A stretch of 64,000 nt of DNA from positions 1 through 64,000 of the IMG/VR virus record IMGVR_UViG_3300042894_003945; one strand, written 5' to 3'. The DNA is from a virus. Below are positions 33,724 to 44,724 of this stretch, piece after piece. The position numbers and the translations under genes are program-made. The stretch's first letter is position 1. Each line of letters begins with the position of its first letter. Under the pieces are notes generated by a model. It saw nothing but the letters and a program-made list of their open reading frames with translations, ran no database searches and was not told the origin of the DNA.

Positions 33724-33989
33724 CTAGGGGATACGTAATCTGCCATATGTTCTTTTCTCTTGGCTAGGTCTTCCATGTTTAAGGTAGTACCTTTATTTTG
33801 TGCTTTTTCTATTTCATCATTATGTTTTTTAATGATATCAGATAGTTTTTTTATATTCATAAGCCTATATGATGCAGGCATATGGTAGGCTTGTTGATAA
33901 GATATTGCACCTTGGCTATTCATTGATAACCAAAGCAATTCATCAAACATATAATTTCTATACTCCGAACTCAGGCCAAAAAAAGTCAA
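33705..33989 (-). CDS. Tail assembly chaperone, distal part (gpT-like), probably made by frameshift
   Basis: The frame is open for 94 codons from a TTG at 33989; the first ATG is only at codon 14. GLSSEYRNYMFDELLWLSMN and then QGAISYQQAYHMPASYR match the second-frame partner of tail-assembly chaperones (lambda T position), which joins the upstream protein through a programmed frameshift. It overlaps the upstream gene by 32 bases that contain a run of seven T (33978-33984). There is no good independent start, and it lies right before the tape measure. A separate protein from TTG or the inner ATG is possible but less likely. Confidence 0.7.
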   Translation of the reverse strand: MTFFGLSSEYRNYMFDELLWLSMNSQGAISYQQAYHMPASYRLMNIKKLSDIIKKHNDEIEKAQNKGTTLNMEDLAKRKEHMADYVSPRAASKK

Positions 33990-34722
33990 CAGTCATGGGT
34001 AGACTAAGGCCCTCCACAACCTCTCCATTAACAGTTGTAAAATCAAACTTCATTACTATGTCTGGGGTATTGTCTGCTATGTTTTTTCTAAGGCTTTGAG
34101 AATCCCTTATAGGCATTGTTTTGATAAAATCTCTAACTACTTTTTTATCTCTATCCCCATCCACCGCTACTATTGAATGTGCAAGTCTTACTGTAACGTC
34201 TGAAGAAAGGTTCTTATTTACCTTTTGTAACCCTCTTATCTCTGCATCAATAGCCATTTCATCCTTATGGGTAGCTATTTTATAAGTTATTAACTTACCT
34301 GACATAGGGAGCTGGTAATTAAATTCATTAACTCCTTTTTTAACTTTATCCCAATCTATCTCTTTTTCCTTTAATGTAGATAAATCTACCGTAACCTCTT
34401 CAGGTACTGTTGATCCTGCCGGAGTATATTTAAAAGGGTACTTGCTACCATATGCTAATATCCTAGCTCCTATCATGATAGCGTTTTTATCTCCTATAAG
34501 AAGATCATTGTAGTCAATTTTACTTGCTATAATAGCCTGTAAAAACTTGTCAATAACTACTCCTTGTTGAATAAAGTTTCTATTTGTTAAGATGTCTTCA
34601 TGCATTGCAGTAGGTAGGTATAACTCAACTTGTCCTGAACTTAGGGGGCTGCTTTCTGGGTAGAGGAACCCTTTTGAGGGAAGGTCTAAAGGTTGTGTCG
34701 GAACATTCATTAAATCTGCCAT
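33958..34722 (-). CDS. T4-type baseplate/tail assembly protein (gp26-like), proximal chaperone
   Basis: 254 residues. PLDLPSKGFLYPESSPLSSG opens the family of T4 baseplate proteins (PF12322-like), followed by a T-x-x-x-E-D-I-L-T helix and LLIGDKNAIMIGARILAYG. The protein is soluble and ends WPEFGV just past a T7 run. By position (before the second chaperone frame and the tape measure) it acts like lambda gpG: it would chaperone the tape measure and recruit tube subunits. A late promoter lies upstream at 34738-34748. Confidence 0.75.
   Translation of the reverse strand: MADLMNVPTQPLDLPSKGFLYPESSPLSSGQVELYLPTAMHEDILTNRNFIQQGVVIDKFLQAIIASKIDYNDLLIGDKNAIMIGARILAYGSKYPFKYTPAGSTVPEEVTVDLSTLKEKEIDWDKVKKGVNEFNYQLPMSGKLITYKIATHKDEMAIDAEIRGLQKVNKNLSSDVTVRLAHSIVAVDGDRDKKVVRDFIKTMPIRDSQSLRKNIADNTPDIVMKFDFTTVNGEVVEGLSLPMTVDFFWPEFGV
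33978..33984 (-). other. Slippery T7 run, candidate programmed frameshift site
   Basis: The minus strand reads GTTGACTTTTTTTGGCCTGAG. In the upstream frame it is GAC-TTT-TTT-TGG, and the downstream chaperone frame reads ACT-TTT-TTT-GGC. A +1 slip of tRNA-Phe on the run (or a -2 slip) moves ribosomes from the 254-residue frame, which ends 18 bases later, into the 94-codon frame. The fused product would be about 335 residues. Confidence 0.6.
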
Positions 34723-35502: not shown

Positions 35503-36093
35503 TTAGAAACCTTCCTCAGTAAAAATCTTCTCAATTCTCTTAGGAAGTTTTTTATAATTCATATTAAATCTAGGAGACATAGCTTCTATAAGCTTTTTAT
35601 TACTGTAAGGACTGTTTTTGGTAGTACACCACCTCCTAGAAATCAACATATAGTTGTAAAAATGCACATATGAATTAGCTTTCTTGGTATAATTTTCAAT
35701 ATCAATAGGCAATTCAAAATCTTTTATTAGCTGAACAGACCTTTTTTCATTGTCTAACTCCAGATCTCTACAGTTTGCTATGTGTTTTTTTATATTTACT
35801 ACGCTATTTCCTTCTAACCAGTAATCTAGTAAAGCCATACTCTTCATACAGGCTTTCCATAAAGGAATCTGTTCTTTCCATTGAGTCAGGTGACAATACT
35901 CATGGACTAATATTTCTACAGAATCCTTCCTACCCATAGAACAAACTAAGGTAGGTACAGTTTCGTCAAAATATCCTGAGGCTTTTATAGAATTGGTGAC
36001 TTTTACATACTTTGTCTTCCTTAAATCGCATTTAACGCCTTCTTTTCGGCATTCTGCCTTAACAAAAGCGATAAAGTACTTAAGTTTATCCAT
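35503..36093 (-). CDS. Putative zinc metallopeptidase-like protein (HExxH)
   Basis: 196 residues. SVEILVHEYCHLTQWKEQ contains HEYCH at 64-68, a gluzincin-type HExxH helix, and a conserved-looking acidic LELDNEK at 111-117 supplies a candidate third ligand (E112 or E116). The surrounding helices and a strand upstream (VPTLVCSMG) suit a small metallopeptidase fold. It is encoded between tail tube and tail chaperone genes, so processing of a tail or host protein is possible. Peptidase activity is not proven. A terminator hairpin with an embedded late element precedes it. Confidence 0.65.
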   Translation of the reverse strand: MDKLKYFIAFVKAECRKEGVKCDLRKTKYVKVTNSIKASGYFDETVPTLVCSMGRKDSVEILVHEYCHLTQWKEQIPLWKACMKSMALLDYWLEGNSVVNIKKHIANCRDLELDNEKRSVQLIKDFELPIDIENYTKKANSYVHFYNYMLISRRWCTTKNSPYSNKKLIEAMSPRFNMNYKKLPKRIEKIFTEEGF

Positions 36094-36105
36094 AGTATAT
36101 ACATT

Positions 36106-36136
36106 AAAAAACCCGCCATAAATAAATATGACGGGT
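36106..36136 (-). terminator. Terminator hairpin with a late promoter element in its loop
   Basis: The stem is 36111-36115 with 36132-36136 (minus ACCCG/CGGGT), one mismatch, then four more A/T-rich pairs, followed on the minus strand by a T6 tail (36110-36105). The upper stem and loop contain ATATTTATT on the minus strand (36129-36121), the same element that precedes other late genes. It would end tail tube transcripts and start those of the HExxH gene (ATG at 36093). Confidence 0.75.
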
Positions 36137-36160
36137 CTTTCCTTTTTAAAGATATGTTAA

Positions 36161-36652
36161 TTAGAAGTTCAAGACCATTCCTGAGTTTCCTAATGTCATT
36201 TCTATTGTGGTGTAGGCGTCCAAAGACCAGTCCCAATCACCAAAAGAAGATACATTCTTAATGTAAGCCTTCTTGATTACCCACTCATTCACTATGTTTC
36301 CTACAGGATCGATAGCGTTGAAGGTAATGTCTTTCCAGTAGAAGTCACCGTAGCCAGCACGACCTGTTACAGTTTCGTAACCAAGTCTAGCCCATTCCAT
36401 AACTGCCTGCGCACCTGAAGGAGACACTGGGTTATAGAGACTAAGGGTTACATCATTCCATCTACGCTTAGCACGAAACTTCACGTATGAGTTGATGTTG
36501 TCGATGATAACTTCTCCATCATCGTATCCTATACCTCCTACCTTTTTGATCAGGTAGGAAGGGACTCCTTGTATATACATTATGAATCTATGTTGGAGGA
36601 TTGGTTCAAACAATGTGCCCAACATTTCATCGGGAGTACTAAGTATTGCCAT
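36161..36652 (-). CDS. Tail tube protein (T4 gp19-like)
   Basis: 163 residues, the usual size of T4-type tube subunits. EPILQHRFIMYIQGVPSYLI is the N-terminal strand pair. A segment with KFRAKRRWNDVTLSLYNPVS and then a WARLGYETVTGRAGYG stretch matches the gp19 core (strand, then the helix before the second sheet), and the C-terminal WDWSLDAYTTIEMTLG is a conserved strand. It polymerises into the inner tube around the tape measure. It follows the sheath gene by 34 bases and has its own late element. Confidence 0.92.
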   Translation of the reverse strand: MAILSTPDEMLGTLFEPILQHRFIMYIQGVPSYLIKKVGGIGYDDGEVIIDNINSYVKFRAKRRWNDVTLSLYNPVSPSGAQAVMEWARLGYETVTGRAGYGDFYWKDITFNAIDPVGNIVNEWVIKKAYIKNVSSFGDWDWSLDAYTTIEMTLGNSGMVLNF

Positions 36653-36686: not shown

Positions 36687-38945
36687 TTATCCGAAATTAA
36701 CCCCAGTAGCTGTGATATTGAATTCCAACAAGATGAATTCGATAGACTTCACAGGAGATACGTAGATCTTACCTACGAGTTGGTTACGATCGATTACATC
36801 ATTAGTATTCAAAGTATCATCAATCTGAATACGGAAGGCATACAAACCTTGACGAGATTGTACACTCTCCATGTAAGGAGTTATTGCTGAGATAAGATTA
36901 TTCCTAGTGGCAATAGTATTATTCTCAAACACATAGTTAAGAGCAACTCCGCTAATGTATTCACGTAAGTTGATTAACAATCTACGAACGTTGATACGAT
37001 TCAAAGCTGTATCTCTAACTTGTAGAGTCTTCTGACCCCAGATTACTACTCCGCTAGTTTGGAATTTAGCAATTGGGTTAACTCTACCATTGTAAAGAGC
37101 ATCTCTATCCGCCTTAGTCAGACGTATACGAGTGTCTATTGCTCCACCAAGACCTCCACGGTTAAGACCAGCAGGAGCAAACCACTCGGCAGCTACTCTG
37201 TCATTATATGCGTAAGCTTGTGGAACTATTACAGTTGGAGGAACGAATATATCTTTAGTGCTATTCAAATCCTTAACTTTAACCCAAGGATAGTAAGCAG
37301 CGCTGTAGCTAGAATCAAGACCAGCAGCAGTAGCTACCGCAGTAACAACTGTAGAGTTTAGACCTGTAAGATCACGGAGATATACCGCATCAGTACGCTC
37401 TTCGCACATATTCTCTGCAAGGAGTGTTACAGGCGAGTGATACTCTTCAATTACACCAGGCAAAGCCAACAAATCAAAGTTATACTCTTCTACATTAGAT
37501 AGAATGTCTATAGCTTTTTGATAAGATGCAGCTCCGGCAGCAGTTCCGCTAGATAAATTAAATCCAAACAAGTTAGATGCTGATATATCTTTTCCTTTCT
37601 TCTTTATAGTAGTGATGTTCATACCATCAGTACCACCTTGGAAAGGAAGCATAAATTTGTTATCTGCACCAGGCTTGGTGAAAGCTACGTTAGAACCAGT
37701 GCCAGCTCCTAGAGGAAGTGGGTTCAAATAGTTCCAGTTATCGCCATTAGAGTAATCAAATCCAGAGAATGAAACACTAGCAGCAGTGCTACTAAGCATT
37801 ACTGCAGCTGGTAAGAACTTACCACTAAATCCAGCAATTGGCTCATACAAAGCCTCATGTCCATTTGGATAAAGTTGAGGGAAGATAGCGCCATCAGCAA
37901 CTCCTTCAGCAAGTTCTACACGAATATAGTTAGATCTGCTATCAAAATCACCGTATTGAATAACTTTAGCAAGAGTTACGTTGTATTCAGAATACTTGTC
38001 TCCGATTGCTTTTGCTATATAATTAGGTGCATTTGGATCTAAAGAAACTCCTACAAATTGTTCGATTATAGATGGAGCCCTGTCAATATCATTCCACTGA
38101 CGTACTATGACATCAAATGTAGAATAATCTGCAGCTGTAGCTCCTTGACTAATGTTGTCTATACCAACTTTAATATCTTTGTTGGTTTTCAAACCATCAG
38201 ACCTGTGGTGGAACTTAAACAACTTAACTCCACTATCAGAAACAACCCATGGAGTAGATGCGTGATCATATCCTCCAGGATTAGAGCTAGTGAACTCACA
38301 GTTAGTAGCTGTGAATACTAATGAGTCGTTTATGCTTCCAGTATAAGAACCGTTAACAGCAAGCGCACTTCCTGTGATGTGGTTACTAAATAATAAATAA
38401 GGGAATACGGAACCAGTTTGATAGTTCTCATCTGTACCCAATACTTTAGATATATAAGTAGCAGAGGTTGGATTTAATGAAGCGCTGAAAGAAGAACTGA
38501 AAGCTCCACTTCCACTGTAGCCTATAAAAAATCCATTGAAAGCATTATAAGTGCCTCCTACGAAAGAAGCGGTACCTATACCTACTGCTGCAGTATCGTT
38601 CTTAGTTGGGTAAATTACACTAAGGATAGTGCTACCGCTAATTATAGCTGCTAAAGGTCTAGTATTAGTGTATATGTATCCACCATTACCAAGTATTCTA
38701 GTTACTTTTGCTGTATTTCCAGCTTGTAAGTAACTATAAACAGTTTGCGGAACATAGCTGTTTGCACCATCGGCACCAAACAACGCAGTAAATTGGCTGT
38801 AGCTAGTAACGTCTACTGGAACGAAAGCAGGGCCTTTTTCAGTAGGTCCTACTACAGCAAGGCCTGTTTGTTCAGTACCTTGAGAGTAGAAGCTCTGATC
38901 GTTTTCGTAGGCATAGACGCCAGCGGAAAGAATTTGTTCTGTCAT
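36687..38945 (-). CDS. Contractile tail sheath protein (gp18-like)
   Basis: 752 residues. The start SAGVYAYENDQSFYSQG, followed by a TGLAVVGPTEKGPAFVPVDV stretch, is the classic N-terminal arm and first domain of sheath proteins. The middle (residues ~100-480) is a variable Ser/Gly-rich insertion. The C-terminal part has a VIWGQKTLQVRDTALNRINV stretch and a RRLLINLREYISG helix, the conserved sheath core used in the mesh contacts. Neighbouring tube gene confirms the role. Its start codon lies in one arm of a 15-bp inverted repeat. Confidence 0.96.
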   Translation of the reverse strand: MTEQILSAGVYAYENDQSFYSQGTEQTGLAVVGPTEKGPAFVPVDVTSYSQFTALFGADGANSYVPQTVYSYLQAGNTAKVTRILGNGGYIYTNTRPLAAIISGSTILSVIYPTKNDTAAVGIGTASFVGGTYNAFNGFFIGYSGSGAFSSSFSASLNPTSATYISKVLGTDENYQTGSVFPYLLFSNHITGSALAVNGSYTGSINDSLVFTATNCEFTSSNPGGYDHASTPWVVSDSGVKLFKFHHRSDGLKTNKDIKVGIDNISQGATAADYSTFDVIVRQWNDIDRAPSIIEQFVGVSLDPNAPNYIAKAIGDKYSEYNVTLAKVIQYGDFDSRSNYIRVELAEGVADGAIFPQLYPNGHEALYEPIAGFSGKFLPAAVMLSSTAASVSFSGFDYSNGDNWNYLNPLPLGAGTGSNVAFTKPGADNKFMLPFQGGTDGMNITTIKKKGKDISASNLFGFNLSSGTAAGAASYQKAIDILSNVEEYNFDLLALPGVIEEYHSPVTLLAENMCEERTDAVYLRDLTGLNSTVVTAVATAAGLDSSYSAAYYPWVKVKDLNSTKDIFVPPTVIVPQAYAYNDRVAAEWFAPAGLNRGGLGGAIDTRIRLTKADRDALYNGRVNPIAKFQTSGVVIWGQKTLQVRDTALNRINVRRLLINLREYISGVALNYVFENNTIATRNNLISAITPYMESVQSRQGLYAFRIQIDDTLNTNDVIDRNQLVGKIYVSPVKSIEFILLEFNITATGVNFG

Positions 38946-39025
38946 TTTCTATAAGATTTGAAAAATATTGTGTATTGATACGTTAATAAATATCAATAAT
39001 TTTCAGCAAAAAAATGACAGAACAA
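38934..39025 (-). promoter_or_regulatory. 15-bp inverted repeat that can sequester the sheath start codon
   Basis: Plus-strand 38934-38948 and 39011-39025 are perfect inverted copies (AAAATGACAGAACAA and its complement). In minus-strand RNA the proximal arm contains the sheath AUG and the next three codons, and the distal arm, 62 bases upstream, is fully complementary. A read-through transcript would fold a 15-bp hairpin over the start; a transcript begun at the late element (38984-38993), located between the arms, would lack the distal arm. Confidence 0.7.
38984..38993 (-). promoter_or_regulatory. Putative late promoter element before the sheath gene
   Basis: The minus strand reads ATATTTATTA preceded by TTG, starting 39 bases before the sheath ATG and lying between the two arms of the 15-bp inverted repeat. 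Transcripts starting here would have an accessible start codon. Confidence 0.6.
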
Positions 39026-39031
39026 TATTTA

Positions 39032-39304
39032 TTAAACCGCTTCTATCTTGCCAGCAGCAAGATCTATAGTGCCTTCACCGTACTTTTTAAGAAGTTCCTG
39101 TGAAAGTTCGCTTTCTTTTTCTCTTAATTTAGAATAATCAGCAAATAACAAATCCTTTTCTTTCTTCAACTCATCTTCTTTCTTACTGAGAAGGTTTAGT
39201 TTAATCTCAATATCTCCGATAGAGTTTAGAGTTTTACCAAACATCTCATTTAAACTTCTTAGACTATCAATCTCTTCTTGAGTCAAATCTCTAACTTCTG
39301 CCAT
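39032..39304 (-). CDS. Small coiled-coil protein
   Basis: 90 residues, predicted helix throughout: LTQEEIDSLRSLNEMFGKTL, then INLLSKKEDELKKEKDLLF-like charged heptads. It ends in a short GEGTIDLAAGKIEAV strand. Similar small coiled-coil proteins occur near tail genes of T4-like phages and in cyanophages, where no function is set. It lies 10 bases after the zinc-ribbon gene. Confidence 0.6.
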   Translation of the reverse strand: MAEVRDLTQEEIDSLRSLNEMFGKTLNSIGDIEIKLNLLSKKEDELKKEKDLLFADYSKLREKESELSQELLKKYGEGTIDLAAGKIEAV

Positions 39305-39314
39305 ATTATTTATT

Positions 39315-39548
39315 TTATATTTCCCATTTTTCTAGTGGACAAGCTTGTTTGCCTGGCAAAGGAGAGAATATTTTCTTCTCCAAAGGACATCCACACTTCC
39401 CACAATAATTATATTTCAGTATCTCACTTATCTTATTTTCCTCACAATCATTACAAGTAGATATCCTCTTTTCTGCCTTTTCCTTTTCTTCTTGAGAAGG
39501 ATTAGCTGCAGATATCCAGGCTGAAGCGATCTCAAGTAGCTTGTTCAC
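39315..39548 (-). CDS. Small zinc-ribbon protein (GTG start)
   Basis: 77 residues. CNDCEEN, then a YCGKCGCPLEKK knuckle, and finally CPLEKW at the end form a cysteine-rich domain found as short proteins in many phages. The N-terminal 30 residues are helical (ASAWISAANPSQEEKEKAEK). The first in-frame start is GTG at 39548, six bases after the membrane-protein gene. It likely binds zinc; the role is unknown. Confidence 0.6.
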   Translation of the reverse strand: MNKLLEIASAWISAANPSQEEKEKAEKRISTCNDCEENKISEILKYNYCGKCGCPLEKKIFSPLPGKQACPLEKWEI

Positions 39549-39554
39549 TCTGTA

Positions 39555-39902
39555 TTATTTTTTAGTTACTGCCTTCTTTTTTGCAACAGTTTTCTTAGCT
39601 TTTGGTTTTGCTTTTGGCTTTGGCGCCTCTGCTTGTACTTCCATAGGTGCTGCTTCAGGAAGTTTTTCAAATAAAACCTCAAGAGCTGGTGATACTTCCA
39701 ACACGGATTCTGGTTGAAACCCGCCAAAAGACTTGTCAGTTTCGTACACAAAAGAACTGTCTACAAAAGAACTGGTAGCCTCTAATGGAGGTTCTACAGG
39801 ATTTGGTGCTACCTTAGGATCTTCTTTTTTCTTTGAGGATTTAAATACAAAAAACAATACTACTGCGATTATAGCAGGAATAAGAATTAATACTGGATTC
39901 AT
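39555..39902 (-). CDS. Membrane-anchored protein with Lys/Ala/Pro-rich tail
   Basis: 115 residues. Residues 3-20 (PVLILIPAIIAVVLFFVF) form a membrane helix, then a basic stop-transfer KSSKKK. The middle is acidic and Pro/Glu-rich, and the last 25 residues (APKPKAKPKAKKT, then VAKKKAVTKK) form a histone-H1-like basic tail. The tail could bind DNA or RNA at the membrane. It is the first gene after a late element. Confidence 0.6.
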   Translation of the reverse strand: MNPVLILIPAIIAVVLFFVFKSSKKKEDPKVAPNPVEPPLEATSSFVDSSFVYETDKSFGGFQPESVLEVSPALEVLFEKLPEAAPMEVQAEAPKPKAKPKAKKTVAKKKAVTKK

Positions 39903-39921
39903 AAATTTATTTTTTTTCTAC

Positions 39922-39931
39922 TAATAAATAT
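39922..39931 (-). promoter_or_regulatory. Putative late promoter element
   Basis: The minus strand reads ATATTTATTA, starting 20 bases before the ATG at 39902, in a 95-base gap that is almost pure A/T. A TATATTTG is also present a few bases upstream on the same strand but has no TTTG at the right distance. Confidence 0.5.
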
Positions 39932-39997
39932 ATACAAATATATATTTTTTCTGTATAATTTATATATTTTTTATAAGAATTTTCTTTAAATTTAAAA

Positions 39998-40273
39998 TTA
40001 ATATTCATTAGTATCTAACCACTCTTGAAGTGGTACGTGGTCTCCATTATACAATTCTCTTCTTAAATCGTGTTCTAAACACTGTTCATAAGTAGGCATT
40101 TCTCCATTTGTTAATGGTTCAGAATGTCTTTGCCCTCTTATAAATTGGATAATATTTTCAAAACATCTAACATCATAAACAAAATTCATATACTCAAAAA
40201 GCACATCTTTTGTAAAATCTTCAGGTTGATATTCTGTTCTAATGTAAATAAAATCAGTTGTAGTGTAACTCAT
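39998..40273 (-). CDS. Hypothetical protein
   Basis: 91 residues, acidic. It has a DFIYIRTEYQPEDFTKDVLF start, helical segments, and a W-L-D-T-N-E-Y end. There is no known motif. It is the last gene of the fibre operon, 12 bases after the 427-residue structural gene. The frame is well isolated and codon use resembles its neighbours, so it is probably a real gene. Confidence 0.55.
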   Translation of the reverse strand: MSYTTTDFIYIRTEYQPEDFTKDVLFEYMNFVYDVRCFENIIQFIRGQRHSEPLTNGEMPTYEQCLEHDLRRELYNGDHVPLQEWLDTNEY

Positions 40274-40285
40274 ATTGTTATATTT

Positions 40286-41569
40286 TTAAATTATAAATGG
40301 ATGCCCGATTGTACCTTGCATAGGAAGTTTTGTAGCTCCGAACGCTAAATAACCCATCCATTCGTTTTCAGGACCACCAGAATCAATTTCAACGATTACT
40401 TGAAAGTTATTATATCCAAAAATATCCATATCTTGCCTTGCTTGTTCTGTACCAGTTGCACTTGGGTATGAGGATATACTATCGTATGATATAGCTAAAT
40501 CTATTTCTGAAGTTGCTAAGTTATCCTCATCTAAGACACCCATGGCTTGTCTAGTAGTTAAACCAGCGGCACTTCCTAATCCGATTCTATCTTGAACTGT
40601 AGCAGTACCTGCTGCTGATTGGGTTTTCATAGAACCCATAAATGATATACCTTTAAGATTGAAAGGAAGTCCAGTCACTGCTGCCGTTCTACCAGAATCT
40701 TGACGTATCGTATATGACCCTGCTTGCCAACCTCCACCTTTAATAGCCATATAGATAAATCTTCTATTTGTTGTACCTCTAGCTGTCCAGTTAAGTGTAA
40801 AAGTATCTGTACCAAAAGCAGACAATACAGCTCTAGCATTTGGGTTACCACCAGCTACAACTATCATGGCTAAACATTCAGTAGCACGAGCATAAGAATC
40901 TGTATCCATAGGATCAGCACCATCATCAGAGTTGCCTACTACAACTATGTTTTGTGCTGTAGCAGTTCCTGTTGCTGCACCTACACATAAACCTGAGTCA
41001 TTAACTTGTCCTGTATTTAACGCCGCTGTTGATTGTACACCAGCAAACATTACACATTGATTATCTCCTCTAGAATTAAAACCATTTGCAGTATAGTTTT
41101 GTGTTCCTGTTGCTGCTGGTTCTGCTATATCACCTATTGTTACTTGTTGAATATCATCTAAACCCCATGCTTCATAAAATATTGTTAAGTTTGCTGGTGT
41201 TGCGTCATCTACTATTAGAGTAAATCCATTTGCATCAATACTACTAATATCTAATCTACCGTCAACTGTACCAGCCCCGTCTACAGTAATACAAACACAG
41301 TTATCAGCAGCTACACTAGCGCAGTCTGCTGCGGCTGAGTTATCAGCACTAAATGTACCAACAGATCTTCTTATAGTTGGACTACTACAAAAACCAATAC
41401 CTCTTCTTTCAGATACTGTTTGAGTAAAAGAATCTGTAGCAGATTGGTGCCCCATCCAATAAAATCTAATCGCTTTAGGACTAAATCCTAAATTAGTAAC
41501 AACTTTAGTTGCATTTAAAGCATCACTTGTTAACCATTGAATTGCACCTTGTGCGTAACCAAATGCCAT
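40286..41569 (-). CDS. Putative tail fibre/appendage protein
   Basis: 427 residues, beta-rich, with many Ala, Thr, Gly and Asp. It has a repeated look of VVTNLGFSPKAIRFYWMGHQ near the start and a TLNWTARGTTNRRFIYMAIKG strand pair later, which suit a beta-sandwich or jelly-roll virion protein. No membrane or signal segment is seen. It is two bases after the 1050-residue collagen-like fibre and probably works with it at the tail tip. The exact family was not recognised. Confidence 0.55.
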   Translation of the reverse strand: MAFGYAQGAIQWLTSDALNATKVVTNLGFSPKAIRFYWMGHQSATDSFTQTVSERRGIGFCSSPTIRRSVGTFSADNSAAADCASVAADNCVCITVDGAGTVDGRLDISSIDANGFTLIVDDATPANLTIFYEAWGLDDIQQVTIGDIAEPAATGTQNYTANGFNSRGDNQCVMFAGVQSTAALNTGQVNDSGLCVGAATGTATAQNIVVVGNSDDGADPMDTDSYARATECLAMIVVAGGNPNARAVLSAFGTDTFTLNWTARGTTNRRFIYMAIKGGGWQAGSYTIRQDSGRTAAVTGLPFNLKGISFMGSMKTQSAAGTATVQDRIGLGSAAGLTTRQAMGVLDEDNLATSEIDLAISYDSISSYPSATGTEQARQDMDIFGYNNFQVIVEIDSGGPENEWMGYLAFGATKLPMQGTIGHPFII

Positions 41570-41571
41570 AA

Positions 41572-44500
41572 TTATGCTCTTGTATAAGTTATTCTAATTG
41601 CTAATAATTCAGCCACCGCCGCTAATGTATCACCACCTGCCGCACCATCTCTATAGCATCTAAATTGCACAAAATTACTAGCTGCTGGGGTACCCCCTAG
41701 TGTTATTGCCGCTGTTGCTGCAGATATATTCACGTCTCTCGTAGCCTGGTTAGCATCGGTAACTGTTTGAGCAGTACCAAAAGCTTGGTCTATCAAATCA
41801 GAATCAGCGTATGCTCTTCCTTGGAATCCCCAAACAACAGAGTTTGTTGATGCGTTATTTGACATCCAATAGAATACTGCAGTTATTGTACCACCATTAT
41901 AATCTGATGGCATAGGCATTGCCCAGTTTGCAAAGGTTTGTGAACCGTCTGCAAAGTTTATAGAGTAAAAGTTTACTGCATTTGTTGCTGTTGCTGTTAG
42001 TGTTGGAGATTGTGCACCAGCTGTAATTGAAGGCCAACCGCCACCAGCTGTTAATATAATTTGACCTGCTACAGATGCACCATTAGCTCCTGAAGTACCT
42101 GCTGAACCAGAAGAGCCACTAGTTCCTGGAGCTCCACTAGCTCCATTTGCACCAGAAGTGCCAGAAGAGCCACTAGTTCCTGGATCTCCACTAGCTCCAT
42201 TTGCACCAGAAGTGCCAGAAGAGCCACTAGTTCCTGGAGCTCCATTGGCACCATTGGCTCCACTTGTGCCTGAACTGCCAGATGTACCAGGAGCACCGTT
42301 TGCTCCATTAGCTCCTGAGGTTCCTGATGAACCTGAAGTTCCGTTAGCTCCATTAGCACCATTGGCCCCATTAGCTCCACTAGTACCAGATGAACCAGAG
42401 GTACCATTAGCTCCGTTAGCTCCGTTTGCACCACTAGTACCACTAGATCCGGAAGTACCATTAGCACCATTGGCACCATTGGCTCCACTTGTTCCGCTTG
42501 TTCCGCTGGTACCGTTAGCACCGTTAGCTCCTGAAGTACCACTAGATCCACTCGTGCCGTTAGCTCCGTTTGCTCCATTTGCACCGGAGGTGCCTGATGT
42601 ACCAGAAGTACCATTAGCTCCATTAGCTCCATTAGCTCCTGAGGTGCCTGATGTACCGGAGGTACCGGAGGTACCGTTAGCTCCGTTAGCTCCATTAGCT
42701 CCTGAGGTACCTGAAGAACCGCTGGTACCGTTAGCACCATTAGCTCCTGAAGTTCCTGAGGTTCCATTTGCACCGTTAGCTCCTGAAGTACCGGAGGTAC
42801 CAGAAGTACCATTAGCTCCGTTAGCTCCGGAAGTTCCTGAGGTTCCTGAGGTTCCATTTGCACCATTAGCACCAGAGGTGCCTGATGTGCCATTAGCTCC
42901 GTTAGCTCCTGAAGTACCAGAAGTTCCGGTTGAACCCGATGATCCTGATGTACCATTGGCGCCATTAGCCCCGCTAGTTCCAGAAGTGCCACTAGTTCCT
43001 GTTGAACCAGAGGTACCTGTACTACCTGATGTGCCTGATGTGCCATTGGCACCATTTGCACCAGATGTTCCAGAAGTACCAGATGTTCCACTAGTTCCTG
43101 ATGTATTTGTAGTGGTTGCTCTATAGTATAGTTGTCCGCTGTTTGTATCTACTACAACGTAGTTAAGTAAAGAGTTAGCAGATAAGTTTACACTTAAAGA
43201 CCCCGTTATGGAAACACTACCACTAATATCTAATAAAGTATTGATTCCAGTTTCCTTACCTATCCCTATTCTTGATTGTGATACATAGAATACTCTCTGT
43301 CCGAATTGTCCTATTCTAACTGTATTATCAGAGAATGCTTCTATTACTGGGAGACCAGCAGCTGTGTTTACTGAGAATAAAGATCCTGAAAGGGAATCTT
43401 CTATTTGGAATAATCTTCCAGATACTCCATCTACTGTAAATACACTAGATCCGGTACCGTTTATTGCTACGGATCCTGTGAACCTGTGGGTATCTGCTGC
43501 ACTATCTCCAAAAATATTACTTCCACTACTATAAATTACTGAAGAAGATACGGTTTGTACCACTAAAGTATTTGCCGTAATATTTCCTGTAGAGGTTATA
43601 TTTCCTGCTACGGATAAGGTAGAACCATCAAATGTTAAATTAGCTTCGGCATTTGCTGTGTTAGTTGTACCTAATGAAGTTAATATTCTGTTATCTACAG
43701 CGTTTGTTATAGTATTAAACCCTGTACCTGATGTACCAGAACTACCTGATGTTCCATTAGCTCCGTTAGCTCCTGAGGTTCCGGATGTGCCGGAAGTACC
43801 AGATGTTCCTGTACTGCCACTAGTTCCACTAGTCCCATTAGCCCCGTTTGCACCACTAGTCCCAGATGAACCAGAAGTACCGTTGGCACCGTTAGCACCA
43901 GAAGTACCGGAAGAACCTGAAGTACCTGTGCTTCCACTTGATCCAGAGGTGCCGTTAGCACCATTTGCTCCGCTAGTTCCTGATGAACCAGAGGTTCCTG
44001 TTGAACCACTAGTACCCGAGGTTCCAGAGGAGCCTGAAGTACCTGATGTACCAGAACTACCAGATGTTCCACTATTGCCAGATGTGCCTGATGAACCTGA
44101 TGTACCTGTGCTACCGCTTGTACCTGTAGTTCCAGAACTTCCAGAGGTTCCATTTGCACCATTAGCACCTGAAGTACCTGAGGAACCACTTGTGCCTGTA
44201 GAACCACTAGTTCCAGAACTGCCTGAAGTACCATTTGCTCCATTAGCCCCGCTAGTTCCAGACGATCCAGATGTACCTGTACTACCACTAGTTCCAGATG
44301 TACCTGTACTACCTGAAGAGCCAGATGTTCCAGTTGAGCCTGATGTTCCAGAAGTACCGCTAGATCCGTTAGCACCAGAAGTACCTGATGTTCCAGAAGT
44401 ACCTGCCGGAGTTAAAGCCCAAGAAGCTGTAGTTGCAAAAGAAGCGGATGTAGCAAATGATGCTGTTCCAAATAATGATCCTGTTAAAAAAGCAAAACTC

Positions 44501-44724
44501 CCAGAAACTACAATAGGTTCTCTGTTAAAAGTTCCCAACCTTATTATATTGTTTGAGAATGCTTCTAATATTGGAATGCCGGAGATATCCTTTACAGCAA
44601 ATAAAGACCCTGACAGATTATCTGTAACAGAAAAAAGTTGGCCTTGGGAACCTTGTACATCTAAAATAGTGGATCCAGACCCGTTTACTACGAGTCCTTT
44701 GCGGACTTTGAATTCATTTGCCAT
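41572..44724 (-). CDS. Collagen-like tail fibre protein, 1050 residues
   Basis: The N-terminal about 105 residues hold the DVQGSQGQLFSVTDNLSGSL module and GTASFATSASFATTASWAL repeats seen in phage tail-fibre heads. Two collagen-like blocks follow (about residues 106-333 and 540-885), strict Gly-X-Y triplets made of GTS, GSS, GAN and GST with almost no proline until a few GAP/GDP near the end. A middle module with a TGFNTITNAVDNR start is nearly the same as one in the 2786-residue fibre. The C-terminal about 165 residues form a beta-rich tip. It has the only strong Shine-Dalgarno in the window and a late element upstream. Confidence 0.8.
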   Translation of the reverse strand: MANEFKVRKGLVVNGSGSTILDVQGSQGQLFSVTDNLSGSLFAVKDISGIPILEAFSNNIIRLGTFNREPIVVSGSFAFLTGSLFGTASFATSASFATTASWALTPAGTSGTSGTSGANGSSGTSGTSGSTGTSGSSGSTGTSGTSGSTGTSGSSGTSGANGANGTSGSSGTSGSTGTSGSSGTSGANGANGTSGSSGTTGTSGSTGTSGSSGTSGNSGTSGSSGTSGTSGSSGTSGTSGSTGTSGSSGTSGANGANGTSGSSGSTGTSGSSGTSGANGANGTSGSSGTSGANGANGTSGTSGSTGTSGTSGTSGTSGANGANGTSGSSGTSGTGFNTITNAVDNRILTSLGTTNTANAEANLTFDGSTLSVAGNITSTGNITANTLVVQTVSSSVIYSSGSNIFGDSAADTHRFTGSVAINGTGSSVFTVDGVSGRLFQIEDSLSGSLFSVNTAAGLPVIEAFSDNTVRIGQFGQRVFYVSQSRIGIGKETGINTLLDISGSVSITGSLSVNLSANSLLNYVVVDTNSGQLYYRATTTNTSGTSGTSGTSGTSGANGANGTSGTSGSTGTSGSTGTSGTSGTSGANGANGTSGSSGSTGTSGTSGANGANGTSGTSGANGANGTSGTSGTSGANGANGTSGTSGTSGANGANGTSGTSGANGANGTSGSSGTSGANGANGANGTSGTSGTSGTSGANGANGANGTSGTSGTSGANGANGANGTSGSSGTSGANGANGTSGTSGTSGANGANGANGTSGSSGTSGANGANGANGTSGSSGTSGANGANGANGANGTSGSSGTSGANGANGAPGTSGSSGTSGANGANGAPGTSGSSGTSGANGASGDPGTSGSSGTSGANGASGAPGTSGSSGSAGTSGANGASVAGQIILTAGGGWPSITAGAQSPTLTATATNAVNFYSINFADGSQTFANWAMPMPSDYNGGTITAVFYWMSNNASTNSVVWGFQGRAYADSDLIDQAFGTAQTVTDANQATRDVNISAATAAITLGGTPAASNFVQFRCYRDGAAGGDTLAAVAELLAIRITYTRA
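42070..43105 (-). repeat. Collagen-like block 2 of the 1050-residue fibre
   Basis: About 345 residues of uninterrupted Gly-X-Y triplets (GTS, GSS, GAN, later GAP). The protein period is 9 bases, but codons are mixed (GGT/GGA/GGC, ACT/ACA, TCT/TCA/AGT), so DNA identity between units is low. GAN pairs dominate here, unlike the other fibre. Confidence 0.9.
43725..44405 (-). repeat. Collagen-like block 1 of the 1050-residue fibre
   Basis: About 228 residues of Gly-X-Y triplets with GTS, GSS, GST and GAN. It lies between the N-terminal fibre-head repeats and the shared TGFNTITNAV module. No proline, so triple-helix stability must come from another source. Confidence 0.9.

What the first reader, a model, noticed from the sequence alone, without database searches (positions are those of the whole stretch)
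38934..39025. Start-codon hairpin that would silence the tail sheath gene in read-through transcripts
A perfect 15-base inverted repeat has one arm over the sheath AUG and its next codons and the other arm 62 bases upstream; the putative late promoter lies between them. Read-through RNA would contain both arms and hide the AUG. RNA from the late promoter would contain only one arm and be translated. T4 is known to use the same logic for some genes (for example e and soc). It would stop sheath synthesis, and wasteful self-assembly, before the late phase.
Basis: partly seen in the sequence, partly recalled or inferred. Interest (0 to 1): 0.78.

Follow-up and report, generated by a model that had tools for sequence, protein, structure and literature searches.

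The report
Read-through hairpin hides tail-sheath start codon
In a group of uncultured T4-like phages, messenger RNA that runs into the tail-sheath gene from upstream is predicted to fold so that its start site is hidden, while RNA begun at the gene's own promoter cannot fold that way; the logic is known from phage T4, but here it sits at a different gene and promoter type, is kept by compensating mutations, and has a transcription-terminator counterpart nearby.

Summary
The 15/15 inverted repeat (38934-38948 / 39011-39025) is real and is the only perfect one of that size and spacing in the 137-kb virus record (0.05 expected). The promoter between the arms is well supported: ATATTTAT precedes 25 of 136 genes (22 of 40 with a gap of at least 25 nt), never antisense, and precedes the sheath gene in 40 of 43 distant relatives. 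The 15-bp repeat is the outer part of a longer hairpin with the promoter at its apex. In 13 of 14 distinct close leaders such a hairpin forms (z -2.3 to -11.4). Arm sequences differ between lineages yet still pair: native arm combinations beat 5038 of 5040 permutations. The exception has a homing-endonuclease-like gene inserted at the 5' arm. Tail-tube promoters of the same phages show nothing similar. A read-through-only block on sheath translation is therefore likely. The mechanism matches T4 e/soc/49/I-TevI. Less familiar is a set of terminator-like hairpins with the same promoter motif in the loop (window 36106-36140 and 17 or so sites in relatives).

The parts
36687..38945 (-). Tail sheath gene (752 aa), the regulated gene
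   Evidence: phrog_23 E 6e-72; relatives
38934..38948 (-). 3' outer arm: last bases before the AUG, AUG and codons 2-4
   Evidence: 15/15 complementary to 39011-39025
39011..39025 (-). 5' outer arm, present only in read-through RNA
   Evidence: pairing kept in clade A
38958..38980 (-). 3' inner arm (TATCAATACACAATATTTTTCAA)
   Evidence: Folding
38991..39008 (-). 5' inner arm (TGCTGAAAATTATTGATA), overlaps the first bases of the promoter motif
   Evidence: Folding
38986..38993 (-). ATATTTAT putative promoter element between the arms, 40 nt before the ATG
   Evidence: Genome-wide motif; conserved in 40 of 43 distant relatives and in Flavobacterium phage immuto
39032..39902 (-). Upstream operon of three small genes (39555-39902, 39315-39548, 39032-39304), likely source of read-through RNA
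   Evidence: ORFs; no terminator-like site before the sheath gene
39924..39931 (-). ATATTTAT putative promoter of the upstream operon
36106..36140 (-). Counterpart at the transcription level: terminator-like hairpin with ATATTTAT (36129-36122) in its loop, before ORF 35503-36093

Best explanation
RNA that enters the sheath gene from upstream contains both arms and folds into a hairpin of about 90 nt that buries the translation initiation region, so sheath is poorly translated from it. RNA polymerase starting at the ATATTTAT promoter at the hairpin apex makes RNA that lacks the 5' arms, and this RNA is translated. The sheath gene is thus expressed essentially only from its own promoter and is insulated from read-through, most probably from the same-class promoter of the three-gene operon about 1 kb upstream, possibly also from earlier transcripts. 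Shown by computation: the arms, their conservation with compensatory change, the motif, the predicted closed and open states. Inferred: that the motif is a promoter, where the RNA starts, and that translation is repressed.
For: Inverted repeat. Motif: 25 of 136 genes sense, 0 antisense; 22 of 40 genes with a gap of at least 25 nt but 2 of 94 with shorter gaps; same motif before terminase, PhoH, sheath, tube and hub genes of Flavobacterium phage immuto, 14 forward to 1 reverse. In 13 of 14 distinct close leaders the 5' flank pairs with the 3' flank better than dinucleotide shuffles of the 5' flank (z -2.3 to -11.4). Predicted openness of -15..+10 is lower in read-through than in promoter-started RNA in all 14 (e.g. 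window 0.32 versus 0.63, AUG 0.00 versus 0.43). Native arm combinations beat 5038 of 5040 permutations across seven lineages; 7 of 9 outer pairs show two-sided changes among L041, L016, L128, L042. Specificity: strongest of 24 motif-bearing genes; absent at the tube-gene promoters of the same phages (z -1.0 to +2.0). The one lineage without it (L008) has a homing-endonuclease-like gene inserted beside the promoter.
Against: No transcript data; start sites unmapped. Clade A buries the AUG itself, but in L016, L041 and L128 the AUG stays partly open (no more closed than in the short RNA) and the helix covers the bases just 5' of it; in L006 and L007 the difference in openness is small. RNAalifold on the joint alignment finds only a 6-bp apical helix without covariation, because registers differ; the two-sided changes rest on a hand alignment of four lineages. 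Distant relatives (below 48% identity) keep the promoter without the hairpin. Part of the inner pairing (GATA..TATC) involves the conserved motif.
Confidence: 0.72

Rival explanations
1. Temporal gate exactly: early or middle transcripts run through, the hairpin keeps sheath silent until the late promoter fires.
For: Identical logic is established for T4 e, soc, 49 and I-TevI, which are late genes on early/middle polycistronic transcripts. The motif is concentrated in the structural-gene part of the genome. All genes around are on one strand.
Against: The nearest upstream promoter motif is of the same class and conserved in place; no early promoter or transcript is known here; other structural genes with the same promoter lack such a hairpin.
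Confidence: 0.25
2. The hairpin is an RNA-processing or stability element (for example an RNase III site or 3'-end protector of the upstream operon) rather than a translation block.
For: Long, largely A+U stem directly after the upstream stop codon; no terminator in between.
Against: Does not explain why the 3' arm always lies on the initiation region or why the promoter sits between the arms in every lineage.
Confidence: 0.1
3. A DNA-level element: palindromic operator or cruciform around the promoter.
For: Complementarity flanks the promoter symmetrically.
Against: Arm sequences differ completely between lineages, unlike a protein-binding site; G-U pairs occur in the stems.
Confidence: 0.05
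4. Chance or mutational inverted duplication without function.
For: The exact 15-nt copy occurs only in the window, L013 and L001 and could have arisen by template switching.
Against: 0.05 expected per genome; 13 of 14 close leaders pair; swap test.
Confidence: 0.04

Closest known systems
T4 genes e, soc, 49 and I-TevI: translation start hidden in long transcripts, late promoter inside the 5' half of the hairpin (PMC3014915, PMC2988022)
   Same: Translation start sequestered in an RNA helix; promoter immediately upstream so that its RNA lacks the 5' strand; similar structures predicted in related phages.
   Different: Tail sheath gene; motif ATATTTAT(A) rather than TATAAATA; most genes lack a Shine-Dalgarno sequence; nearest upstream promoter is of the same class; pairing shifts register between lineages.
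Aeh1 mobE and T4 segB homing-endonuclease hairpins (PMC2988022)
   Same: Same architecture of hairpin and promoter.
   Different: Those control mobile endonucleases; here the insertion of a homing-endonuclease-like gene (L008) coincides with loss of the hairpin.
PeSLs, composite promoter-terminator motifs of T4-like phages (Comeau, Arbiol, Krisch 2014; not held, seen only as a cited title and a short mention in PMC4503421)
   Same: Promoter and terminator stem-loop combined in one intergenic element; resembles the terminator counterpart found here.
   Different: PeSLs carry early promoters; here the motif marks structural genes and lies in the loop. Exact PeSL geometry could not be checked.

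Membership tests
T4 e/soc/49/I-TevI-type read-through hairpins | SD and/or AUG sequestered in an RNA helix in long transcripts | tested here: met
   Predicted in window and relatives by folding; not probed experimentally
T4 e/soc/49/I-TevI-type read-through hairpins | Promoter placed so that its RNA lacks the 5' strand | tested here: inconclusive
   ATATTTAT motif lies between the arms; start site not mapped
T4 e/soc/49/I-TevI-type read-through hairpins | T4-type late promoter TATAAATA | tested here: not met
   Sense motif is ATATTTAT(A), 25 genes sense and 0 antisense; no gp55-like protein seen in the proteins scanned, but the scan was incomplete
T4 e/soc/49/I-TevI-type read-through hairpins | Gene lies on long early/middle transcripts | not testable with these tools
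   Nearest upstream promoter motif is of the same class; no transcript data
T4 e/soc/49/I-TevI-type read-through hairpins | Reduced 30S binding or translation on the long RNA | not testable with these tools
   Needs toeprint or reporter
PeSL promoter-terminator cassettes | Early promoter combined with a terminator stem-loop | tested here: not met
   The sheath hairpin is not a terminator-like site; the motif is concentrated at structural genes, 16 of 58 in 31-101 kb against 2 of 36 in 1-31 kb
PeSL promoter-terminator cassettes | Mobile cassettes that mediate gene shuffling | not tested
   Defining papers not held
Rfam families | Match to a described RNA family | tested here: not met
   No match up to E 1 in 38000-40500

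The most novel reading that the evidence does not exclude
These phages use one regulatory layout, a structural-gene promoter in the loop of a hairpin that only read-through RNA can form, with two outputs: blocking translation (sheath) or terminating transcription (terminators with ATATTTAT in the loop, after the tube gene and elsewhere). It would insulate neighbouring units of the same promoter class from each other rather than separate early from late.
Probability: 0.45. Interest if true: 0.65.

Novelty: new variant of a known kind. Interest (0 to 1): 0.55.

Why it matters
It extends a regulatory design known from a few T4 genes to a major virion protein in a distant group of T4-like phages, with evolutionary evidence (two-sided changes, register shifts) that the structure and not the sequence is selected. 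Together with the promoter-in-loop terminators it suggests a compact way to insulate adjacent transcription units that needs no extra DNA and can be looked for in other phages. A cultured relative with the same promoter motif (Flavobacterium phage immuto) makes the promoter assignment testable now.

Tried and rejected
Joint RNAalifold of 13 relatives gave only a 6-bp apical helix, because clade A and the others pair in different registers; replaced by per-sequence shuffles, an arm-swap permutation test and a hand alignment. The idea that the 5' arm is merely a -33 promoter element: TTTTG is shared near this position in many relatives, but the TTTGTCA part is confined to clade A, and upstream flanks of other motif copies show no common element. 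Terminator reading of the sheath hairpin: no terminator-like site there. Rfam: no match. Sigma-70 type promoters: 16 found against 19.9 expected in shuffles. Genome contigs: no relatives. Two PHROG batches failed on wrong coordinates and were not repeated, so the search for a late sigma factor is incomplete. Literature searches for a TATTTATA late promoter and for promoter-in-terminator-loop elements found nothing pertinent in the held library. Structure prediction of proteins was not needed.

Full report
Setting. The window is bases 1-64000 of a 136,878-base virus record with no named host. The gene at 36687-38945 (minus strand) is a tail sheath. Downstream lie a tail tube (36161-36652) and a baseplate hub (33958-34722); upstream lies a run of three small genes of unknown function (39902-39032). 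Most genes start without a Shine-Dalgarno sequence, and the sheath of Flavobacterium phage immuto is a full-length relative at 34% identity, so a Bacteroidota host is plausible but not shown.

Observation. The inverted repeat is exact over 15 nt with a 62-nt gap. It is the only one of that kind in the record, against 0.05 in Markov sequences. Folding of the region gives z -5.3. The stem continues inwards, so the structure is one long hairpin with bases 38993-38986 (ATATTTAT) near the apex.

The motif between the arms. A k-mer comparison of upstream regions with gene interiors put ATATTTAT first among 8-mers (26 genes against 1.0 expected). It lies mostly 11-41 nt before an ATG. It is upstream of 25 of 136 genes in sense and of none in antisense, concentrates in genes with an upstream gap (22 of 40 versus 2 of 94) and in the structural part of the genome (16 of 58 versus 2 of 36 in the DNA polymerase/RNR part) (functions). 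The core TATTTAT precedes the sheath ATG by 24-49 nt in 40 of 43 distant relatives tested. The full motif stands before terminase, PhoH, sheath, tube and hub genes of phage immuto, several times directly after a terminator-like hairpin. A promoter for structural genes is the simplest reading. It is not T4's TATAAATA in sense orientation, and the start site is inferred.

Conservation. Twenty loci were found with the sheath protein, more with an alignment and with a DNA pattern. Fourteen distinct leaders belong to the group of close relatives (sheath identity about 62% or more where measured). In 13 of them the 45 nt upstream of the motif pair with the leader and first codons better than dinucleotide shuffles of those 45 nt (z -2.3 to -11.4). 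Two architectures occur. Clade A (window, L001-L007) pairs over the AUG. L016, L041, L042 and L128 pair the bases just 5' of the AUG with quite different sequences; L009 does this and can also pair at the AUG. Exchanging 5' and 3' halves between seven lineages shows that the native combinations are better than 5038 of 5040 permutations. In a hand alignment of the outer stem of four lineages, 7 of 9 pairs show two-sided changes, with two broken cells. The gene-side arm of clade A is coding and does not vary, so the literal 15-bp arms cannot show compensation; that evidence comes from the lineages that pair elsewhere. Joint RNAalifold sees only the apical helix.

Controls. Among 24 motif-bearing genes of this genome the sheath has the strongest pairing across the promoter (duplex z -5.5); the second is a terminator-like site. 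The tube-gene promoters of the same phages show none (z -1.0 to +2.0). In distant relatives the promoter is kept without the hairpin. L008, the only close relative without significant pairing, carries a gene with NUMOD1 and weak GIY-YIG matches inserted between the upstream gene and the promoter.

What it most likely does. RNA from the ATATTTAT promoter would start within or after the apical loop and lack both 5' arms; its initiation region is predicted more open than in read-through RNA in all 14 sequences, though only slightly in L006 and L007. The read-through most clearly to be expected comes from the upstream operon: an ATATTTAT copy lies 0.9-1.4 kb upstream of the sheath ATG in 11 of 12 sequences that reach that far, with no terminator-like site between it and the sheath gene in the window. 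That promoter is of the same class, which favours insulation over an early/late gate; both remain possible.

A counterpart at the level of transcription. Downstream of the tube gene the window has GACCCGTCATATTTATTTATGGCGGGTTTTTT (36106-36140): a terminator-like hairpin with the promoter motif in its loop and the next ATG 28 nt after the motif. Across all loci, 18 of 687 distinct TATTTAT sites sit in the loop of a stem of at least 10 bp (0.35 expected after shuffling the 5' flank), 15 of them with a U-rich tail (0.10 expected). Other A+T heptamers give 0-9; the higher of these overlap the motif or its reverse complement, so they partly count the same sites. The listed sites have a gene ending 30-74 or about 230 nt before and another starting 19-43 nt after, and stems of differing sequence. 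Transcription entering from upstream would terminate; transcription starting in the loop would not. This part was not pursued to the same depth.

Comparison with what is known. The logic is that of T4 e, soc, 49 and I-TevI (PMC3014915; PMC2988022). The sheath hairpin works like these, with a different promoter motif and gene; membership cannot be claimed because the T4 promoter type was tested and not met. The terminator counterpart resembles PeSLs, known here only from a cited title and short mention (papers not held).

Limits. Everything is computed from sequence. Relatives are metagenomic contigs and not independent samples; z-scores use 100-200 shuffles; genes were called mechanically; late sigma factor genes were not searched exhaustively.

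Noticed in passing
window 36106-36140 (minus strand); L039 12592, L034 9982, L019 1097, L042 6212, L037 9448, L058 8222, L061 7243 and others: Terminator-like hairpins with the structural-gene promoter motif TATTTAT in the loop, next ATG 19-43 nt downstream; 18 observed against 0.35 expected.
   Followed up: partly
L008 402-1133: GIY-YIG/NUMOD-type homing-endonuclease-like gene inserted between the 90-aa gene and the sheath promoter; the sheath read-through hairpin is lost or strongly weakened there.
   Followed up: partly
L043, L044, L047-L051, L053, upstream of sheath: More distant relatives have a separate hairpin (ATAGGTGAC...GTCGCCTAT) preceded by a second TATATTTATA motif about 100 nt before the sheath ATG, instead of the promoter-spanning hairpin.
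   Followed up: no
L134 (Flavobacterium phage immuto, record bases 118000-160366): ATATTTAT occurs 14 times forward and once reverse, before terminase, PhoH, sheath, tube and hub genes, often right after a terminator-like hairpin.
   Followed up: partly
window 38957-38971 and 39022-39036: Second, 87% inverted repeat overlapping the 5' outer arm by 4 nt; it could compete with the main hairpin or form a pseudoknot-like alternative.
   Followed up: no
window 41572-44724: 1050-aa protein built largely of TSGTSG/ANGANG repeats, looks like a collagen-like fibre.
   Followed up: no
L037 and L115, just after the promoter-in-loop terminators: The following ORFs begin with zinc-finger-like C..C..H..H motifs (MECKICGKVFGNKNGLSKHLYKTH; MTKFNCNQCNRDFNSLKGLQNHNSRIH), possibly mobile endonucleases using these sites.
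   Followed up: no
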